IMG/VR virus record: IMGVR_UViG_3300044801_000216
Span: 1-63,561 of that record
DNA: 63,561 nt
From: a virus
Strand: one strand, 5' to 3'
Every line of letters starts with the position of its first letter. Positions within the stretch are counted from its first letter, which is position 1. Below the pieces are notes generated by a model. That model did no database searches and was not told the origin of the DNA. It saw only the letters and a program-made list of their open reading frames with translations. Of this stretch, positions 3,700 through 45,101 are shown piece after piece. The translations under genes and the position numbers were made by a program.

Positions 3700-3999
3700 A
3701 TGAACGGATTGAACTCGGATTTATCCCTCCCCGCCACGACTACTTCCCAGCAGGACCTGACCACCGCCGGCCAGCGCCGGGTGAACCTCTTGTGGGAGTA
3801 CACCCAAGCCATCATCGCGATCGTCGTCACCGTTTGCACGATGACGGCGGGGGCCTACGCGACGTTCAACAAGAGCGAGACCCCGCCTGTGCTTAACATC
3901 TCGTTCGGCATGGTGATCGGGTTCTATTTCAGCCGGACGAATCACGCGGCCATCGGAGGCATTGGCAAGAAGCCGTCGCAAGATTACGAGGGACGGTAG
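3700..3999 (+). CDS. Holin-like small membrane protein, 99 aa
   Basis: Two hydrophobic segments are visible, at about residues 30-52 (around IIAIVVTVCTMTAGAY) and 62-82 (around VLNISFGMVIGFYF), joined by a short polar turn, with a hydrophilic N-terminus and a basic, glycine-containing C-terminus. Size and topology fit a class II holin or a holin-like late membrane protein. It ends only 5 bases before the end of the convergent minus-strand block, with no clear terminator between. A second holin-like gene lies at 37824-38027, so which one triggers lysis is unclear. Confidence 0.6.
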   Translation: MNGLNSDLSLPATTTSQQDLTTAGQRRVNLLWEYTQAIIAIVVTVCTMTAGAYATFNKSETPPVLNISFGMVIGFYFSRTNHAAIGGIGKKPSQDYEGR

Positions 4000-4406: not shown

Positions 4407-5861
4407 TTACTCCTTTTCTTTCCAGCGTTCCAGGATCTCGCAATCGGACTCTATCGGGGTCCGCCACAGACGCACACCCGTCTGGCGGTCGTCCATCACA
4501 TGATCGAACACATACTGCATCAACGAGCCCACCGATGCGGCGTAGTCTTCTTCGACCTCGGCGATGATCTGGTCGTGGACGCTCAGCAGCGCTTCGCAGT
4601 ACACATCGTTCGCGCGCAGGACTTCAAATTCGTCTTCGCACTCGGCCATGGCCAGTTTGGTTTGCTCCGCGTTGGATGCGGTGACGGCGAAGTTCTGAGC
4701 CTCTCTAAGCCCCTCGGATACCTTCCAGGACAGACTCGAACGAACCTGTGGGATGTAGCGCACCCGTCCCCAGGGGTCCCAAACAAACCCATATCTTCTT
4801 GCCCGATAGTACTGGACATCGAAGTACGGCTGGACCTCTGGATATGTTTGGTGCCAGGATTCGATGAACCGCTTGCACCACTCTTCGGTCAGCCAGTCGG
4901 GCGGCGTCATATCCGCGGCCCAGTAGTCGGTCACCAACTGGGCATGGAGACCTTTTTCGGTTGTGCCGTTCTGAATCCCGAAGTTCACCCTCTTACTGGG
5001 CAGCCGGTGCTTGTATTTGTCTACTTGCGCCGGGTCCGAGATCCCGAACGACTTCATCGCCGTGTTGGTGTGGATGTCTCCGCCCGCGTTGTAGATCCGG
5101 ATCATCGATCGAGCGTCGGCCAGGTGCGCGAGGTCGCGGATCTCCATCTGGGAGAAATCGACGCTGACCAGTCGGGTGCCCGGCGACGCCATAAACGCGC
5201 CGCGGATACGGGCCCCCAGATTGGAACGGATAGGTATTTGCTGGAGGTTTGGATTCCGGCTACTGAGCCTGCCCGTGATCGCGCGCGTGGTGGGGAAGGT
5301 AGTGTGCAAACGCCATGTAGACTCTACATGCGGCAGTTCGCACAGGGGGCACGATAGACCTTTGGGGTGCAGCCGGGCCTTTTGCGGCAGTGCGTCGCAG
5401 AATGCCGATTTGAGCTTGGCGCGTTCGCGATACTGGAGCACCAGCGGCACCACCGGATGATCGTCGCGGCACATCTCCAACTGCTTGCGTCCGGTGCTGA
5501 TACGGCCGGCGCCGGTCGTCTTGAGTTTCAGTTTGCTTCCGATGGCGAGCAAGTCGAACAGCAGGACCCGGATCTGTTCCGAGCTGGCGGCGTTGATGGT
5601 GGCGCTGCCCTGCTCTTCTTCGATGTTCGCCGCCGCCGCGCTGAAGCGGTCGAGCGCGTCCGGTGGGATGTAGGAGGCGATCCGCTTCTGAAGCTCCGCC
5701 ATCTCGGAGCCGAACTGGGAAGATAGCTCGCGCAGATAGGGCAGGTCAACGGCGATGCCGACGCGGGTCATTCTATTTAGCTGGGGCAAGACCATCAGAT
5801 CGAGCCGGCGGACGTTTTCAAGGTCCGGCCGGCCAGGCAGCGCGATGCCGTTATAGAGCAT
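4407..5861 (-). CDS. Family A DNA polymerase, polymerase domain, 484 aa
   Basis: The palm and fingers motifs of family A polymerases are present: motif A DFSQMEIR (about residue 235), motif B RLPSKRVNFGIQNG (about 290) and motif C LLSVHDQIIAEVE (about 430). The 3'-5' exonuclease is on a separate protein encoded just upstream, whose end overlaps this ATG by 11 bases. Relative to E. coli Pol I numbering, position 762 is Phe, position 766 (usually Tyr) is Asn, and the Glu of the motif C HDE is Gln. These changes may alter fidelity or speed. The perfect palindrome CATGTAGACTCTACATG lies inside this gene at 5314-5330. It should copy the phage genome. Confidence 0.93.
   Translation of the reverse strand: MLYNGIALPGRPDLENVRRLDLMVLPQLNRMTRVGIAVDLPYLRELSSQFGSEMAELQKRIASYIPPDALDRFSAAAANIEEEQGSATINAASSEQIRVLLFDLLAIGSKLKLKTTGAGRISTGRKQLEMCRDDHPVVPLVLQYRERAKLKSAFCDALPQKARLHPKGLSCPLCELPHVESTWRLHTTFPTTRAITGRLSSRNPNLQQIPIRSNLGARIRGAFMASPGTRLVSVDFSQMEIRDLAHLADARSMIRIYNAGGDIHTNTAMKSFGISDPAQVDKYKHRLPSKRVNFGIQNGTTEKGLHAQLVTDYWAADMTPPDWLTEEWCKRFIESWHQTYPEVQPYFDVQYYRARRYGFVWDPWGRVRYIPQVRSSLSWKVSEGLREAQNFAVTASNAEQTKLAMAECEDEFEVLRANDVYCEALLSVHDQIIAEVEEDYAASVGSLMQYVFDHVMDDRQTGVRLWRTPIESDCEILERWKEKE
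5316..5328. promoter_or_regulatory. 13-bp operator-like palindrome, perfect copy
   Basis: TGTAGACTCTACA, two 6-bp inverted half-sites around one central base; the symmetry extends to 8-bp arms (5314-5330). It lies within the polymerase gene, so it may act as a transcription roadblock, a partition-type site or a binding site of unknown use. Confidence 0.6.
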
Positions 5862-39204: not shown

Positions 39205-41418
39205 ATGAACCGCCACCCCGGTTACTCGCCTATCGACACCGCTTACTTGTGTCCCGCTCCATTCGAGCTTGACCGCAGCCGCCAGGAGTGGACCCCCTGT
39301 TCGCCCGACGAACTCTTCGCCTGGTCGCAGCAGATGCTCTCGGACGCACGCAGCTATCTCCGTCTCCAGCCGGCCTACAAGTACATCGCCGATGGCATGG
39401 ACATGGTCAACGGGGACTACCTGGTTACAGGCACCCAGTCGTTATCGGACGTGCGCACCGAGGCCACGATGCGCAACACCCGCGAGATCGTGGCCGCCCA
39501 GACCAATCTGCGCATCATCCCGTCGTTCAAATCCGAAGCGGAGCAGTACCGCGAGCAGAACGCGATATTAAACAAGGGCTTCATCGCCTGGCAGAACATG
39601 ACCTTCGCGGACCGTCAGCTCCGCAAGGCGTGGCAGTGGGCCTGCGCGGGCGGAACGGGGTACATAGGCCCCCGCTACGATCCCCATTATTATCATCGCG
39701 GCAAGGGAGACATCGTCTGGGACCCCTACGGACCGCTCGACGTTCTGCCGCTGGGTCTGCCGTCCAATCTGAGCCTGCAAGGAGCCTATGCCGTCGGTCT
39801 TCGCAAGAAGATGCCGATCCACCAGGTCTGGCGGATGTTCCCGTTGCAGCGCGACAACATCAAGGCCAACCGGGTCTCTACCGGCGGCAAAGGCATGGTG
39901 ATCGCGCAGGCGGTCAAGTTCGCCAGTGCGGTCCTGAAGCGCTTCGGTCAAGGCAACCGCCAGCCCGAGGAAGCGTCCACCTGGGACACAACCGACGTGT
40001 ACTACATCTACGTGGACGACGACTCGGTGAACGAAACAGGGCATCCGTTACAAATCTGCGGTCCCGACGGCCAGTGGGGCACCAGTTGGTCTTACACCGT
40101 GCCCTTTGTGGGACAACAGGTAGCTACAGGCCGGGTTCTGTCCGGCGGACGCCAGGAGTTCCGCACGGCCCGTCGCGAAGACTGCCTGATCTATCCCAAC
40201 CGCAGGCTGGTCATCGCTACGGACACCTGCATTATCAATCCGGCGCCGGAGCACCAATCGTCCTACCGCTGGGACGGCCGTGTGCCCATCGTGCAATTCA
40301 GGGCGGACGACTGGGCCTGGAATTTCCTCGGGTTCCCCGTGACCCGTTACGGCCAGTCGATCGAGAAGCTGATGATCGAGCTGTGGCGCGGCGTCGGCGA
40401 CAAGATGAATTTGAGCCTGAACCCCAGCGCGTTTTACGACCGCGGCTCCAGCGCGCTGGCAATGCTGCAAACGGTGAACCCGCGGATACCCGGATTGCGC
40501 GTCGGTTTGGACATGGGTTTGACCGGCGCTTCGAGCCAGTTCGTGCCCATGCTGCCTCACGAATGGTATCAGGTGGACTCCGGAATCGTCGAAACGGTGT
40601 CCAAGATCCTGCCGGCCATTCTGAAAGAGCAGATGGGAGTGGCCGACGTATCGGCGATGGCGCGGGCAAGGCAGCTACCCAGCGGAGATTCCACCGAAAA
40701 GCTGCTGGAAGCGATGGGTCCGCTGGTGAAAGACCAGTCGCGCAACATGGAGGAAGGCATCAGGCTCGCCGGCGAGATGTGGAAGTCCGACTGGTTCCAG
40801 TTCGCCACCGCCAAACGCCGCATGCAGATGTTAGGCCCCGATGGCGTCGCCGAAGAGGACTTAGATTTCGAGCCGGGCACGCTCATCCCAATGTCCGAGG
40901 ACCCCAACGACAAGAAGCGGACGCTGCCGATGTTGGAGGGACCGGACGGCTCCTGGAATTACAGCCCCGATGCGCCGGACGAACGCATGCCATCGCTTGC
41001 AGTGGAGCAGTTCGAGCGCGCCCGCTGGCACAAGGGAAACTTTACATTCTCCGTCACACCTTATTCGCTTCACGAGTTCAATTCCACGACGCGCAAGTTG
41101 TTCATGCTCCAGTTGATGAAAGTCGGGTTCCCGCTTTCGTGGTGGACACAGGCCGATTTGTTCGACGTGAAGAACTTCGGTCCCTGTATGTTCAAAGATC
41201 CCGAATCGGGAGAACTCCGCGAAGCCCGCAACGAGATCGAGCGCTGGACCGTGCAGCTTGAAATTCAGGCCCGAATCGCGCAAGCGATGGGCGGCGGAGG
41301 CGGCGGCAAAGGCAAAGGCGGCCAGCGCGGCCGTCCGCAGACGTTCGCTCAACCGCCCGTGATGGAAAGCAAGGCCGGCGGCTCGACCAGTACGGTCAGA
41401 ACATCGGCACATAGTTAA
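39205..41418 (+). CDS. Portal protein, 737 aa
   Basis: A large protein with a helical N-terminal part, a strand-rich core with Trp-rich segments (WDPYGPLDVLPLGLPSN) and a long helical stem (residues ~490-560), followed by a Gly/Lys-rich tail with GGGGGGKGKGGQRGR. Its size (700-750 aa) and its position after the terminase and before scaffold and coat genes match portal proteins of P22-like and other short-tailed phages. It forms the dodecameric channel through which DNA enters and leaves. No single motif proves it. Confidence 0.85.
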   Translation: MNRHPGYSPIDTAYLCPAPFELDRSRQEWTPCSPDELFAWSQQMLSDARSYLRLQPAYKYIADGMDMVNGDYLVTGTQSLSDVRTEATMRNTREIVAAQTNLRIIPSFKSEAEQYREQNAILNKGFIAWQNMTFADRQLRKAWQWACAGGTGYIGPRYDPHYYHRGKGDIVWDPYGPLDVLPLGLPSNLSLQGAYAVGLRKKMPIHQVWRMFPLQRDNIKANRVSTGGKGMVIAQAVKFASAVLKRFGQGNRQPEEASTWDTTDVYYIYVDDDSVNETGHPLQICGPDGQWGTSWSYTVPFVGQQVATGRVLSGGRQEFRTARREDCLIYPNRRLVIATDTCIINPAPEHQSSYRWDGRVPIVQFRADDWAWNFLGFPVTRYGQSIEKLMIELWRGVGDKMNLSLNPSAFYDRGSSALAMLQTVNPRIPGLRVGLDMGLTGASSQFVPMLPHEWYQVDSGIVETVSKILPAILKEQMGVADVSAMARARQLPSGDSTEKLLEAMGPLVKDQSRNMEEGIRLAGEMWKSDWFQFATAKRRMQMLGPDGVAEEDLDFEPGTLIPMSEDPNDKKRTLPMLEGPDGSWNYSPDAPDERMPSLAVEQFERARWHKGNFTFSVTPYSLHEFNSTTRKLFMLQLMKVGFPLSWWTQADLFDVKNFGPCMFKDPESGELREARNEIERWTVQLEIQARIAQAMGGGGGGKGKGGQRGRPQTFAQPPVMESKAGGSTSTVRTSAHS

Positions 41419-41767: not shown

Positions 41768-41993
41768 GACCTGTGGAACCTTCAACGGTTCTTCGCTCTC
41801 CGCTTTGACGGGCGCCGTACCATCCGCCAAGCTACAGGTAGAAGTCCGTTTGCCGGCGTCTTCGATGGCTGAAGTTCTGGAAACGATTCACCGCTTGGGC
41901 AGGACCGGCAATCTGACCGTGAACTTCTCGAACGGTCACGCGATGGACCTCAAGTGGTCCAGCAGCAGGCAGGCAAAACCACCGGAAGTGTAG
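41718..41993 (+). CDS. Hypothetical protein, 91 aa
   Basis: Begins at GTG 41718 or 41724 inside the preceding gene. The C-terminal two-thirds look like a small alpha/beta domain (LQVEVRLPASSMAEVLETIH, TVNFSNGHAMDLKW). Its stop codon TAG lies inside the perfect 13-bp palindrome at 41989-42001. No function assigned. Confidence 0.5.
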   Translation: MAVPENENGRVPPSSGKTCGTFNGSSLSALTGAVPSAKLQVEVRLPASSMAEVLETIHRLGRTGNLTVNFSNGHAMDLKWSSSRQAKPPEV

Positions 41994-42001
41994 ACTCTAC
42001 A
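41989..42001. promoter_or_regulatory. 13-bp operator-like palindrome, perfect copy before small-RNA promoter
   Basis: TGTAGACTCTACA lies 11 bases upstream of TTGACA (42013-42018), the -35 of a candidate promoter that leads to a ~108-nt terminated transcript. This is the clearest promoter-linked copy in the window. Confidence 0.7.
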
Positions 42002-42048: not shown

Positions 42049-42156
42049 TGAAGGGCGTTCATCGCGGCAGGGAACGTCCCCGGATGCGATTCACCTCCTT
42101 GGGTGGATTTAGCGAAAGGCAGGTCACTCAATCAGCCGGGTGGCCTGCCTTTTGTG
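42049..42156 (+). ncRNA. Putative phage small RNA with an anti-Shine-Dalgarno segment
   Basis: A transcript from the promoter at 42013-42042 to the terminator at 42115-42156 would be about 108 nt. It has a 5' hairpin (GGGCGTTC 42053-42060 with GAACGTCCC 42072-42080, one bulge), then TCACCTCCTT at 42091-42100, which is identical to the conserved 3' end of 16S rRNA, held in a small CACC...GGTG hairpin with the loop exposing UCCUU. It could pair with ribosome binding sites of many mRNAs, or with a specific one. No start codon follows it on the minus strand, so it is not simply a minus-strand ribosome binding site. Function is a hypothesis; no expression data. Confidence 0.55.
42115..42156 (+). 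terminator. Rho-independent terminator
   Basis: AAAGGCAGG (42115-42123) pairs with CCTGCCTTT (42144-42152), the loop side holds partial TCAC / GTGG pairing, and TTTTGTGTTTC follows. Ends the putative small RNA and shields the downstream capsid genes from upstream RNA. Confidence 0.8.
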
Positions 42157-42262
42157 TTTCTGGGGACTGGCTCTAATGCGCAGTGCGTTCGTTCCAAGTA
42201 CCGATAGCCGGGACACAGGGTAACCTGTTCGATCCTTGGTGGTCGGAGAAAGGAGCAACACC

Positions 42263-42340
42263 ATGACGGAGAACCTGTTCGGGCCGGTGGAGAATCGGCG
42301 CGGTAAGGGACGCCACAAGGGCCGCGGCAAAAAGCGGTAA
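42263..42340 (+). CDS. Putative basic microprotein, 25 aa
   Basis: ATG 42263 follows a very good AAAGGAG. It reads MTENLFGPVENRRGKGRHKG then RGKKR: an acidic head and a Lys/Arg/Gly-rich tail, a design that could bind nucleic acid. It is alone between the terminator and a strong hairpin. A short size makes it uncertain, but the ribosome binding site is better than for many real genes here. Confidence 0.45.
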   Translation: MTENLFGPVENRRGKGRHKGRGKKR

Positions 42341-42349
42341 CCTGTGAGA

Positions 42350-42385
42350 CCGGCCCCCGTTCGATTCGACTCTTGCGGGGGCCGG
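42350..42385 (+). terminator. Strong GC hairpin (terminator-like, no U-tract)
   Basis: CCGGCCCCCG (42350-42359) and CGGGGGCCGG (42376-42385) form a perfect 10-bp stem with a 16-base loop. The sequence after it (CCTTGACTTG) has no U-run, so it could be an RNA processing or pausing site instead. Confidence 0.5.
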
Positions 42386-42439
42386 CCTTGACTTGTAACC
42401 AGTACCAGCCCTTTGTAGAACGTAACGGAGGGATATTCG

Positions 42440-42905: not shown

Positions 42906-43940
42906 GTGCCAGTAGACAAGCAGTTTTTGGAACAGTGCATCGCAGAAGCCTCCGATGGCGACCAGGAGTTCGCCACCGCCTTGCGCGCCAAGCTCAGTGC
43001 GAACGACACTCTGGCGGCCAAGTTCGTAGGCGGCTACATGCGCAATTCGGACTACACCAGGAAGACGCAGGAGTTGTCCGACCAGCGCAGGCAGTTCGAC
43101 GGTCAATCCGGACAGCTCGACACCTTGCGCAAGGCGCTCGAAGCCGCCGAAATGGAGAAGGCGAACATCCTGAAGGAATTGGCGGGCCACCGCATCGGCA
43201 CCGCCAAAGCGCGCGAGCTGATGAAGCTCCTGCAAGAGAAGTATCAATTGACCGACGACGATCTGCCGGGGATGAGCGATCTGATCGAGACCTCCAAAAA
43301 GGGCAAGCCGGTCGATACGACCGAGGACGTGGACTCCCGCATCAAGGCAGCGGTCGCCGAAGCCGAAACCCGGATGGAGAAGAAGTTCGCCGGCGCGATG
43401 ATCCCCGAGATCGGCGCCATGGCCGCGATGCCCCGCGTATGGGGCTCGATCGAGCGAGAGCACAAGGATCTGACCGGCAAGGATCTCAGCGACGAAGAAG
43501 CCACGGCGATCCTACAGGACGCGCGCACGAACAACAAGTCGCTGCGCCAGTCCTGGGAGGACAAGTTCGGCATCGGCGGCAGCGACGGCCTGCGGATGCA
43601 GAAGCGCGACGAGAAGCTGAAGTCGCAGTGGCAGGCCGATCGCGAGAAGGAAGAAGCGGATAAGCGCAGCAAACAGGCGCTCGAAGTGGTAACACCCGCC
43701 CAGGCGGACCTGGGAAGCGGACCCGGCATCAGCCCCGCGTTCAAGACCAGGTTCAGAACTTTCGAGATGGACCCGAACAAACCGGCGCAGGCTGCCGGCG
43801 ACGGGGTTCCTACCTTGAAGGTCGAACCCGGACAGCATGTGCGGCAAGCGGGCGACCGCGGACCCTCTGGAGCGCAGCGGGCCGCCGCGAAGTTTTTGGA
43901 GAGAGTCAACAGCGGAGGTTACGGCAAGAAAACGGCGTAG
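42906..43940 (+). CDS. Scaffolding protein, 344 aa
   Basis: GTG 42906 gives MPVDKQFLEQCIAEASDGDQ. Long helical, acidic/basic alternating body with few aromatics (about 60-270), typical of coiled-coil scaffolds, and a Gly-rich, basic C-terminal end that could contact the coat protein. It is encoded immediately before the major capsid protein, the classic place. The scaffold role is inferred; no protease is visible nearby, so it may be removed intact. Confidence 0.75.
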   Translation: MPVDKQFLEQCIAEASDGDQEFATALRAKLSANDTLAAKFVGGYMRNSDYTRKTQELSDQRRQFDGQSGQLDTLRKALEAAEMEKANILKELAGHRIGTAKARELMKLLQEKYQLTDDDLPGMSDLIETSKKGKPVDTTEDVDSRIKAAVAEAETRMEKKFAGAMIPEIGAMAAMPRVWGSIEREHKDLTGKDLSDEEATAILQDARTNNKSLRQSWEDKFGIGGSDGLRMQKRDEKLKSQWQADREKEEADKRSKQALEVVTPAQADLGSGPGISPAFKTRFRTFEMDPNKPAQAAGDGVPTLKVEPGQHVRQAGDRGPSGAQRAAAKFLERVNSGGYGKKTA

Positions 43941-43961
43941 CCTCGAAAGGAGTGAAATCAG

Positions 43962-45101
43962 GTGGCAGATCCGTTGTTAGATCCTATCAACGAAACGACA
44001 CTTCCGGAAGTGAACCAGGATGCGATCGAGGATGAGTTCTTTCTATCGAGCGTTTTCCAGGCTCACCTCCGCAGTAAGTGCTTGGTTCCTTTTGAGGGCG
44101 GCGCTTTCATGCGCAACCTTCAACTCTATGCGCCTCTCATCGGCGGCGCATATGCCAAGGGCGTAGGCGGCTTCAATCTCACCAAGCCGCTGACAATCAG
44201 CTCGAACGTCTTCGACCCTAAGTACTACGTGGTCATGATTGTCGAGTACCTGGAGGACATCAGCGTCCTCAACACAGGGGACCTTGCGGTCTTCAGCCTG
44301 CTCGAAACCGACATGGCGAACGCCTACCTGACCATGAGCACAATCATGGCGCTGGATCTCCAGCAGAACGGCCAGGTGGCGCCTCGGACCATCAACATGA
44401 ACGGCTGGACGGAGTTCCTGAACAACGGCGTGGACCCCTCGTATGACGCGGGCATCTACACCACCTACGGCACGGCTGCCCGCAACGGCGCGACCGGCGC
44501 GGCGCTCAACGGCAATGTCTACTGGGGCGGACAGGCCAAGTCGGGTTCGACCGCCGCGGCCGGCACGATCCAGTACGCGCAGATCAACGCGATGTACATC
44601 TTGGCCAAGCGCGGCCAGGCCGAGCCGGAGTTGTTCACGATGAACAAGCCGCTCAACAACTTTGTCGAGAACCGCATTCAGCAACAGCAGCGGTTTGGCA
44701 CGGAAGGCGCGGGAGTACGCGACCCGTTCTTCGGCGCGATGGGGTTCCGCTTCAAGAACCTGATTGTGATGGTGGACGACTACTTCCCGTCGAGCTTCGG
44801 CGCGTTCGGCAAGACCACCAATCCGGGCGGCAGCAACCTGACCGGCACGGTGGCGACCGGCGCCGCGACCAGCTCTAACTTCCCGCTGAACGCGACCTGC
44901 ACGGTTGGCGAGGTCGGCTGCATGTTCAACATGGGCCGCATCGCTTTCCGGCTCTCGGCCAGCTCGGAGTTCGGCTTCATGCCGACCGACTTCATACGGG
45001 CTCCCGACAACACGCGGGTAGCTTCTCAACTGAAGGCCGCCGTCAACGTCGAGAACACCGCCCCCTGGACCGGAGTTCAGGGTTACGGCTGGACTTCATA
45101 G
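43962..45101 (+). CDS. Major capsid protein, 379 aa
   Basis: GTG 43962 (MADPLLDPINETTLPEVNQD) follows GGAGTG. It is a 379-residue protein rich in Gly, Thr, Asn and Ala. Phe/Met-rich strand-turn segments (AFMRNLQLYAPLIGGAYAKG) and GFRFKNLIVMVDDYFP suggest an HK97-type fold, and its place right after scaffold and before decoration-like genes is typical. It should form the icosahedral shell. I found no direct motif proof, only size, order and composition. Confidence 0.82.
   Translation: MADPLLDPINETTLPEVNQDAIEDEFFLSSVFQAHLRSKCLVPFEGGAFMRNLQLYAPLIGGAYAKGVGGFNLTKPLTISSNVFDPKYYVVMIVEYLEDISVLNTGDLAVFSLLETDMANAYLTMSTIMALDLQQNGQVAPRTINMNGWTEFLNNGVDPSYDAGIYTTYGTAARNGATGAALNGNVYWGGQAKSGSTAAAGTIQYAQINAMYILAKRGQAEPELFTMNKPLNNFVENRIQQQQRFGTEGAGVRDPFFGAMGFRFKNLIVMVDDYFPSSFGAFGKTTNPGGSNLTGTVATGAATSSNFPLNATCTVGEVGCMFNMGRIAFRLSASSEFGFMPTDFIRAPDNTRVASQLKAAVNVENTAPWTGVQGYGWTS

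What the first reader, a model, noticed from the sequence alone, without database searches (positions are those of the whole stretch)
42049..42156. Putative phage small RNA with a perfect anti-Shine-Dalgarno decamer
The order is palindrome (41989-42001), TTGACA-18-CATACT promoter, 5' hairpin, UCACCUCCUU (42091-42100, identical to the 16S rRNA 3' end) in a small hairpin loop, and a Rho-independent terminator. No ORF fits the transcript. It could base-pair with ribosome binding sites of host or phage mRNAs, or mimic the 16S end to titrate factors, and its operator could tie it to lysogeny control. A 3'-16S mimic in a phage is, to my knowledge, not described.
Basis: partly seen in the sequence, partly recalled or inferred. 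Interest (0 to 1): 0.8.

Follow-up and report, generated by a model that had tools for sequence, protein, structure and literature searches.

The report
Attenuated leader RNA of phage head operon
The spot is not a ribosome-mimicking small RNA but the start of a long, folded leader, with a promoter and an early stop signal, that precedes the phage's head-building genes and recurs at the same place in its relatives, while the ribosome-like stretch occurs in this one phage only.

Summary
The sequence features are real: palindrome, TTGACA-18-CATACT promoter, 5' hairpin, UCACCUCCUU, strong intrinsic terminator, no conserved ORF. But the anti-SD decamer is not the point. It lies mostly inside a stem (6 of 10 bases paired), occurs by chance in 13% of shuffled windows, and is absent from all related leaders, including the closest (TCATCCTCCTC). 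What is conserved, in 27 distinct related viral modules, is: sigma70-like promoter, structured leader (usually with an embedded intrinsic terminator), a second hairpin AGTACCGATAG..GTCGGRGAAAGGAG at the ribosome-binding site, and a tiny Arg/Lys-rich ORF heading the scaffold/major-head-protein genes. Sequence after the terminator pairs back with sequence before it (combined P about 1e-9), so the read-through RNA is under selection. No comparable promoter lies within 3 kb downstream in any relative. Five relatives lack the terminator but keep promoter and second hairpin. Best reading: attenuated leader of the head operon, working like lambda pR'-tR' (short terminated RNA unless polymerase becomes terminator-resistant), without detectable Q, N or put homology. 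A trans anti-SD role is unsupported. The RNA family is not in Rfam. All evidence is computational; transcription is not shown.

The parts
41989..42001 (.). 13-bp palindrome TGTAGACTCTACA, 11 bp upstream of the -35 box; one of 8 dispersed copies
   Evidence: same place in L002, L005, L006
42013..42042 (+). sigma70-like promoter TTGACA-18-CATACT
   Evidence: promoter at the equivalent place in the related modules
42049..42087 (+). 5' leader segment: local hairpin GGGCGUUC/GAACGUCCC, or 5' arm of long-range helix P1
42088..42109 (+). variable middle hairpin P2; carries the anti-SD decamer 42091-42100 in this phage only
42112..42158 (+). intrinsic terminator: GC-rich hairpin plus U-tract (P3)
   Evidence: terminator found in 22 of 27 modules; stem covaries in the distant clade
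42157..42195 (+). post-terminator segment that pairs back with 42053-42085 (3' arm of P1)
42197..42254 (+). element 2: AGTACCGATAG-hairpin-GTCGGAGAAAGGA, conserved hairpin ending at the Shine-Dalgarno sequence
42263..42340 (+). tiny Arg/Lys-rich ORF, 25 aa (MTENLFGPVENRRGKGRHKGRGKKR), first gene after the leader
42350..42386 (+). hairpin with conserved 16-nt loop TTCGATTCGACTCTTG; three copies of the loop in L002
42440..45101 (+). head genes downstream of the leader: 117-aa protein, scaffold-like (42906-43940), major head protein (43962-45101)
   Evidence: phrog_3927, phrog_9953

Best explanation
The region is the promoter and attenuated 5' leader of the phage head-morphogenesis operon. Host polymerase starts near 42049. 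By default most transcripts stop at the intrinsic terminator near 42156, giving a roughly 105-nt RNA. When polymerase is made terminator-resistant (by a phage factor bound at the promoter or upstream palindrome, or by the leader RNA itself), it reads through; the post-terminator segment then folds back onto the 5' segment (P1), and element 2 with its Shine-Dalgarno sequence leads into the tiny basic peptide and the scaffold and head genes. Supported by comparison: the module, its structure, the terminator and the lack of another recognisable promoter. Inferred: that it is transcribed, that the terminator works, and that read-through is regulated. The anti-SD decamer is incidental.
For: 27 distinct modules with promoter, leader, element 2 and, in nearly all, a recognisable basic ORF. 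Terminator in 22 of 27; L005, L066, L070, L078 and L080 lack it but keep promoter and element 2, as expected if the promoter serves the downstream genes. No promoter of at least 10/12 within 3 kb downstream in any of the 27 and only one upstream in about 100 kb. Closing-helix pairing P = 2.7e-14 combined, much weaker on the opposite strand; pre/post-terminator pairing P about 1e-9. Leader 42049-42262 z = -6.5 on + and -1.6 on -; the + strand folds more stably in 26 of 27. Where portal and head genes are separated (L027), the module stays with the tiny ORF. Other promoters of the window have short leaders without terminators.
Against: No transcription data. No Q, N or other known antiterminator was found among the proteins scanned with PHROGs or Pfam (not every gene was scanned). 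No direct-repeat Q-binding element seen conserved between -35 and -10. The terminator may simply be leaky. The relatives are not fully independent, and P1 pairs only 77% of cells in the fixed-column alignment of the distant clade. Promoter scoring assumes a sigma70-type consensus in an unknown host.
Confidence: 0.6

Rival explanations
1. A free-standing trans-acting small RNA whose anti-SD decamer pairs with ribosome-binding sites or mimics the 16S 3' end.
For: Own promoter and terminator; perfect decamer; CU-rich stretches also occur in the middle hairpins of L002, L011, L013 and L053.
Against: Decamer absent from every relative's leader, mostly paired, found in 13% of shuffles; only the structure and flanks are conserved; conservation extends beyond the terminator; the known anti-SD sRNA class keeps several invariant unpaired motifs (PMC10746234).
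Confidence: 0.08
2. The terminated RNA has a trans function unrelated to anti-SD pairing (for example binding host RNA polymerase or a protein), and the terminator exists to make it.
For: Terminated RNA should be abundant; the 5' segment GAAGGRCGUUC..CGG is the best conserved part of the leader among close relatives; other phages make abundant ncRNAs of unknown function (PMC5712189).
Against: Five relatives lack the terminator yet keep the promoter; leaders of distant relatives share almost no sequence with the window's; evidence of selection on post-terminator pairing.
Confidence: 0.17
3. A ligand- or protein-sensing attenuator (riboswitch-like, or autoregulated by the tiny Arg-rich peptide) rather than a processive antitermination system.
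For: Structured leader before a terminator; second conserved hairpin at the SD; downstream peptide resembles RNA-binding arginine-rich motifs (resemblance from general knowledge).
Against: No conserved antiterminator alternative fold was noticed (not searched for systematically); the 5' part is not conserved in sequence across the whole family; no Rfam match.
Confidence: 0.15

Closest known systems
Lambdoid late promoter pR' with terminator tR' and antiterminator Q (lambda, phage 21; PMC6606751, PMC6266700)
   Same: Strong promoter followed by a promoter-proximal intrinsic terminator ahead of late genes; short terminated RNA expected; the promoter region diverges fast between relatives.
   Different: No Q homologue or Q-binding repeat detected; the post-terminator RNA pairs back to the leader; a second conserved hairpin and a tiny basic ORF follow; the promoter lies between portal and scaffold genes.
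HK022 put RNA (PMC9378689)
   Same: Structured 5' RNA with hairpins directly downstream of a phage promoter, able in principle to act on polymerase in cis.
   Different: put consists of two stem-loops of about 70 nt acting on early transcripts; no direct comparison or activity test was made here.
NfeR1 / alpha-r14 'cuckoo' anti-SD sRNAs (PMC10746234)
   Same: Several hairpins, an anti-SD-like motif.
   Different: Those carry three identical ultraconserved unpaired CCUCCUCCC motifs with variable stems; here a single motif, mostly paired and not conserved.

Membership tests
Anti-SD trans sRNA (NfeR1 / cuckoo type) | anti-SD motif conserved among homologues | tested here: not met
Anti-SD trans sRNA (NfeR1 / cuckoo type) | motif in unpaired regions, in several hairpins | tested here: not met
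   one copy, 6 of 10 bases paired
Lambdoid pR'-tR'-Q late control | sigma70-type promoter plus promoter-proximal intrinsic terminator before late genes, with no other recognisable promoter nearby | tested here: met
   (sequence criteria only)
Lambdoid pR'-tR'-Q late control | Q-family antiterminator gene | tested here: inconclusive
   none found among the proteins scanned; not every ORF was scanned and Q families are diverse
Lambdoid pR'-tR'-Q late control | Q-binding element between -35 and -10 and a -10-like pause element | tested here: inconclusive
   read by eye in the modules; no conserved repeat seen in the spacer
HK022 put RNA | about 70-nt two-stem RNA that suppresses termination via the RNAP beta' zinc-binding domain | not testable with these tools
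   needs in vitro transcription
Any Rfam family | covariance-model match at gathering score | tested here: not met
   ten relatives gave only group I introns elsewhere

The most novel reading that the evidence does not exclude
An undescribed family of phage late-operon leader RNAs in which the nascent RNA itself, or the arginine-rich micropeptide encoded just downstream, acts on RNA polymerase to pass an embedded terminator: an N/Q-independent late-gene switch, probably in phages of soil Acidobacteriota.
Probability: 0.2. Interest if true: 0.75.

Novelty: new variant of a known kind. Interest (0 to 1): 0.45.

Why it matters
It replaces an anti-SD story with a testable view of late-gene control in an uncultured phage group: promoter, attenuator and a conserved RNA hairpin placed before the capsid genes in many relatives. 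The RNA has no match in Rfam, so it would be a new family, and it suggests that promoter-proximal termination before structural genes is used well outside the lambdoid phages.

Tried and rejected
Rfam at gathering and relaxed thresholds: nothing credible. DNA similarity in named phages: no match. A scan of IMG/VR for the 5' hairpin pattern gave mostly chance hits. Anti-SD in cis, leader against its own downstream SD: P = 0.045, weak. SD sequestration by the junction next to element 2: P = 0.86, rejected, although the window itself predicts GUUCC/GGAGC pairing. Prophages in GTDB genomes: none by pattern or portal, so the host stays unproven. Tunturi_1, the nearest named phage (portal 29%), shows no such promoter-leader between portal and head genes. 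A coding explanation for 42049-42156: the only ORFs of 40 aa or more there (43 aa on +, end of a 109-aa ORF on -) have no support as genes. A Q-binding repeat or known antiterminator gene was looked for without success.

Full report
What is there. The window is a 63.6-kb viral contig of a presumably temperate tailed phage (integrase, ParB-like and HTH_3 genes) with an apparent early region on the - strand and late genes on the + strand. The finding lies between the portal gene (39205-41418, identified through its 29% match to the annotated portal of Tunturiibacter phages) and the scaffold and major head genes (42906-45101). The promoter, palindrome, 5' hairpin, decamer and terminator are present as described.

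Is the decamer meaningful? At least one TCACCTCCTT turns up in 13% of shuffled windows. In the fold, UCACCU is paired and only CCUU is free. The closest relative, L002 (portal 94%), has TCATCCTCCTC in the same hairpin; L004 (81%) has no such motif; other leaders have unrelated middle hairpins. In 1.27 Mb of fetched loci (which include duplicates) the decamer is found in three loci, on the - strand each time, so not in a leader. CU-rich stretches recur in some middle hairpins, but complementarity to the gene's own SD is barely above chance. The motif is not what selection maintains.

What is maintained. Portal homologues in IMG/VR gave 31 loci. In most, a TTGACA-17/18-TAnnnT promoter lies upstream of the head genes, followed by a structured leader. 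Close relatives share GAAGGRCGUUC..CGGC..CCCCGGA..AGCNGAAGGC; distant ones share little sequence with the window's leader yet keep promoter, terminator and position. Downstream of the terminator sits a second element, AGTACCGATAG-hairpin-GTCGGRGAAAGGAG, with an invariant outer helix and a covarying inner helix, then a tiny Arg/Lys-rich ORF. Two pattern scans with element 2 found further contigs, giving 27 distinct modules.

The RNA does not end at the terminator. Folding whole leaders showed the post-terminator segment pairing back with the pre-terminator segment, for example CGGUAAGCCCGCU/AGCGGGUCUACCG in L032. Against shuffles the pairing is significant in combination: P about 1e-9 for pre/post segments, 2.7e-14 for the closing helix over all 27, against 4.7e-5 on the opposite strand. 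Lineages are not independent, so these P values overstate the case; nevertheless 21 of 22 terminator-bearing leaders lean the same way. The window leader to the start codon folds at z = -6.5 on + and -1.6 on -. This points to selection on the read-through RNA, which a free-standing terminated sRNA would not predict.

Function. No promoter of similar strength is found within 3 kb downstream in any module (less where the contig ends), and only one in about 100 kb upstream. Five relatives lack the terminator but keep promoter and element 2. In L027, where other genes separate portal and head genes, the module stays with the tiny ORF. Hence the promoter most likely serves the head operon and the terminator attenuates it. 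This is the layout of lambdoid pR'-tR', where Q makes polymerase terminator-resistant (PMC6606751, PMC6266700). HK022 put shows that a structured 5' RNA alone can do the same (PMC9378689). Neither a Q gene nor a described put element was found, so this may work like such a system but is not filed as a member. How read-through is achieved is inference. All statements on transcription rest on sequence only.

Palindrome. TGTAGASTCTACA occurs eight times with at most one mismatch, against none in 100 shuffles, mostly inside genes, one next to the HTH_3 gene (19284). Dispersed sites of this kind recall mycobacteriophage stoperators (PMC9283540, abstract) or ParB sites. One copy lies 11 bp from the -35 box here, and near it in L002, L005 and L006. 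A link to lysogeny is plausible but untested.

Verdict. The element is an RNA family not in Rfam, in a known kind of regulatory layout.

Noticed in passing
window 5316, 10098, 19284, 20730, 32068, 41989, 47287, 51368: 13-bp palindrome TGTAGASTCTACA dispersed over the genome, 8 copies against 0 in 100 shuffles; related GTAGNNNCTAC palindromes are also frequent in L026, L101 and L105. Possible stoperators or ParB-type sites.
   Followed up: partly
window 42350-42386; L002 about 4840-4945; L004 about 3918-3950: Hairpin with changing stem but conserved 16-nt loop TTCGATTCGACTCTTG between the tiny ORF and the next gene; L002 has three copies of the loop in tandem.
   Followed up: no
window 42197-42254 and relatives: Element 2, AGTAMCGATAG-hairpin-GTCGGRGAAAGGAG, is the best conserved non-coding element of the group; L011 carries what looks like a tandem duplicate.
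   Followed up: partly
window 42263-42340 and relatives: Tiny Arg/Lys-rich ORF (13-25 aa, e.g. MARRRGRRRGRRR in L023) first after the leader; possible RNA- or DNA-binding micropeptide.
   Followed up: no
L031 7670-7856 and L032 3566-3767: Group I introns (Rfam RF00028) downstream of the leader module in two related phages.
   Followed up: no
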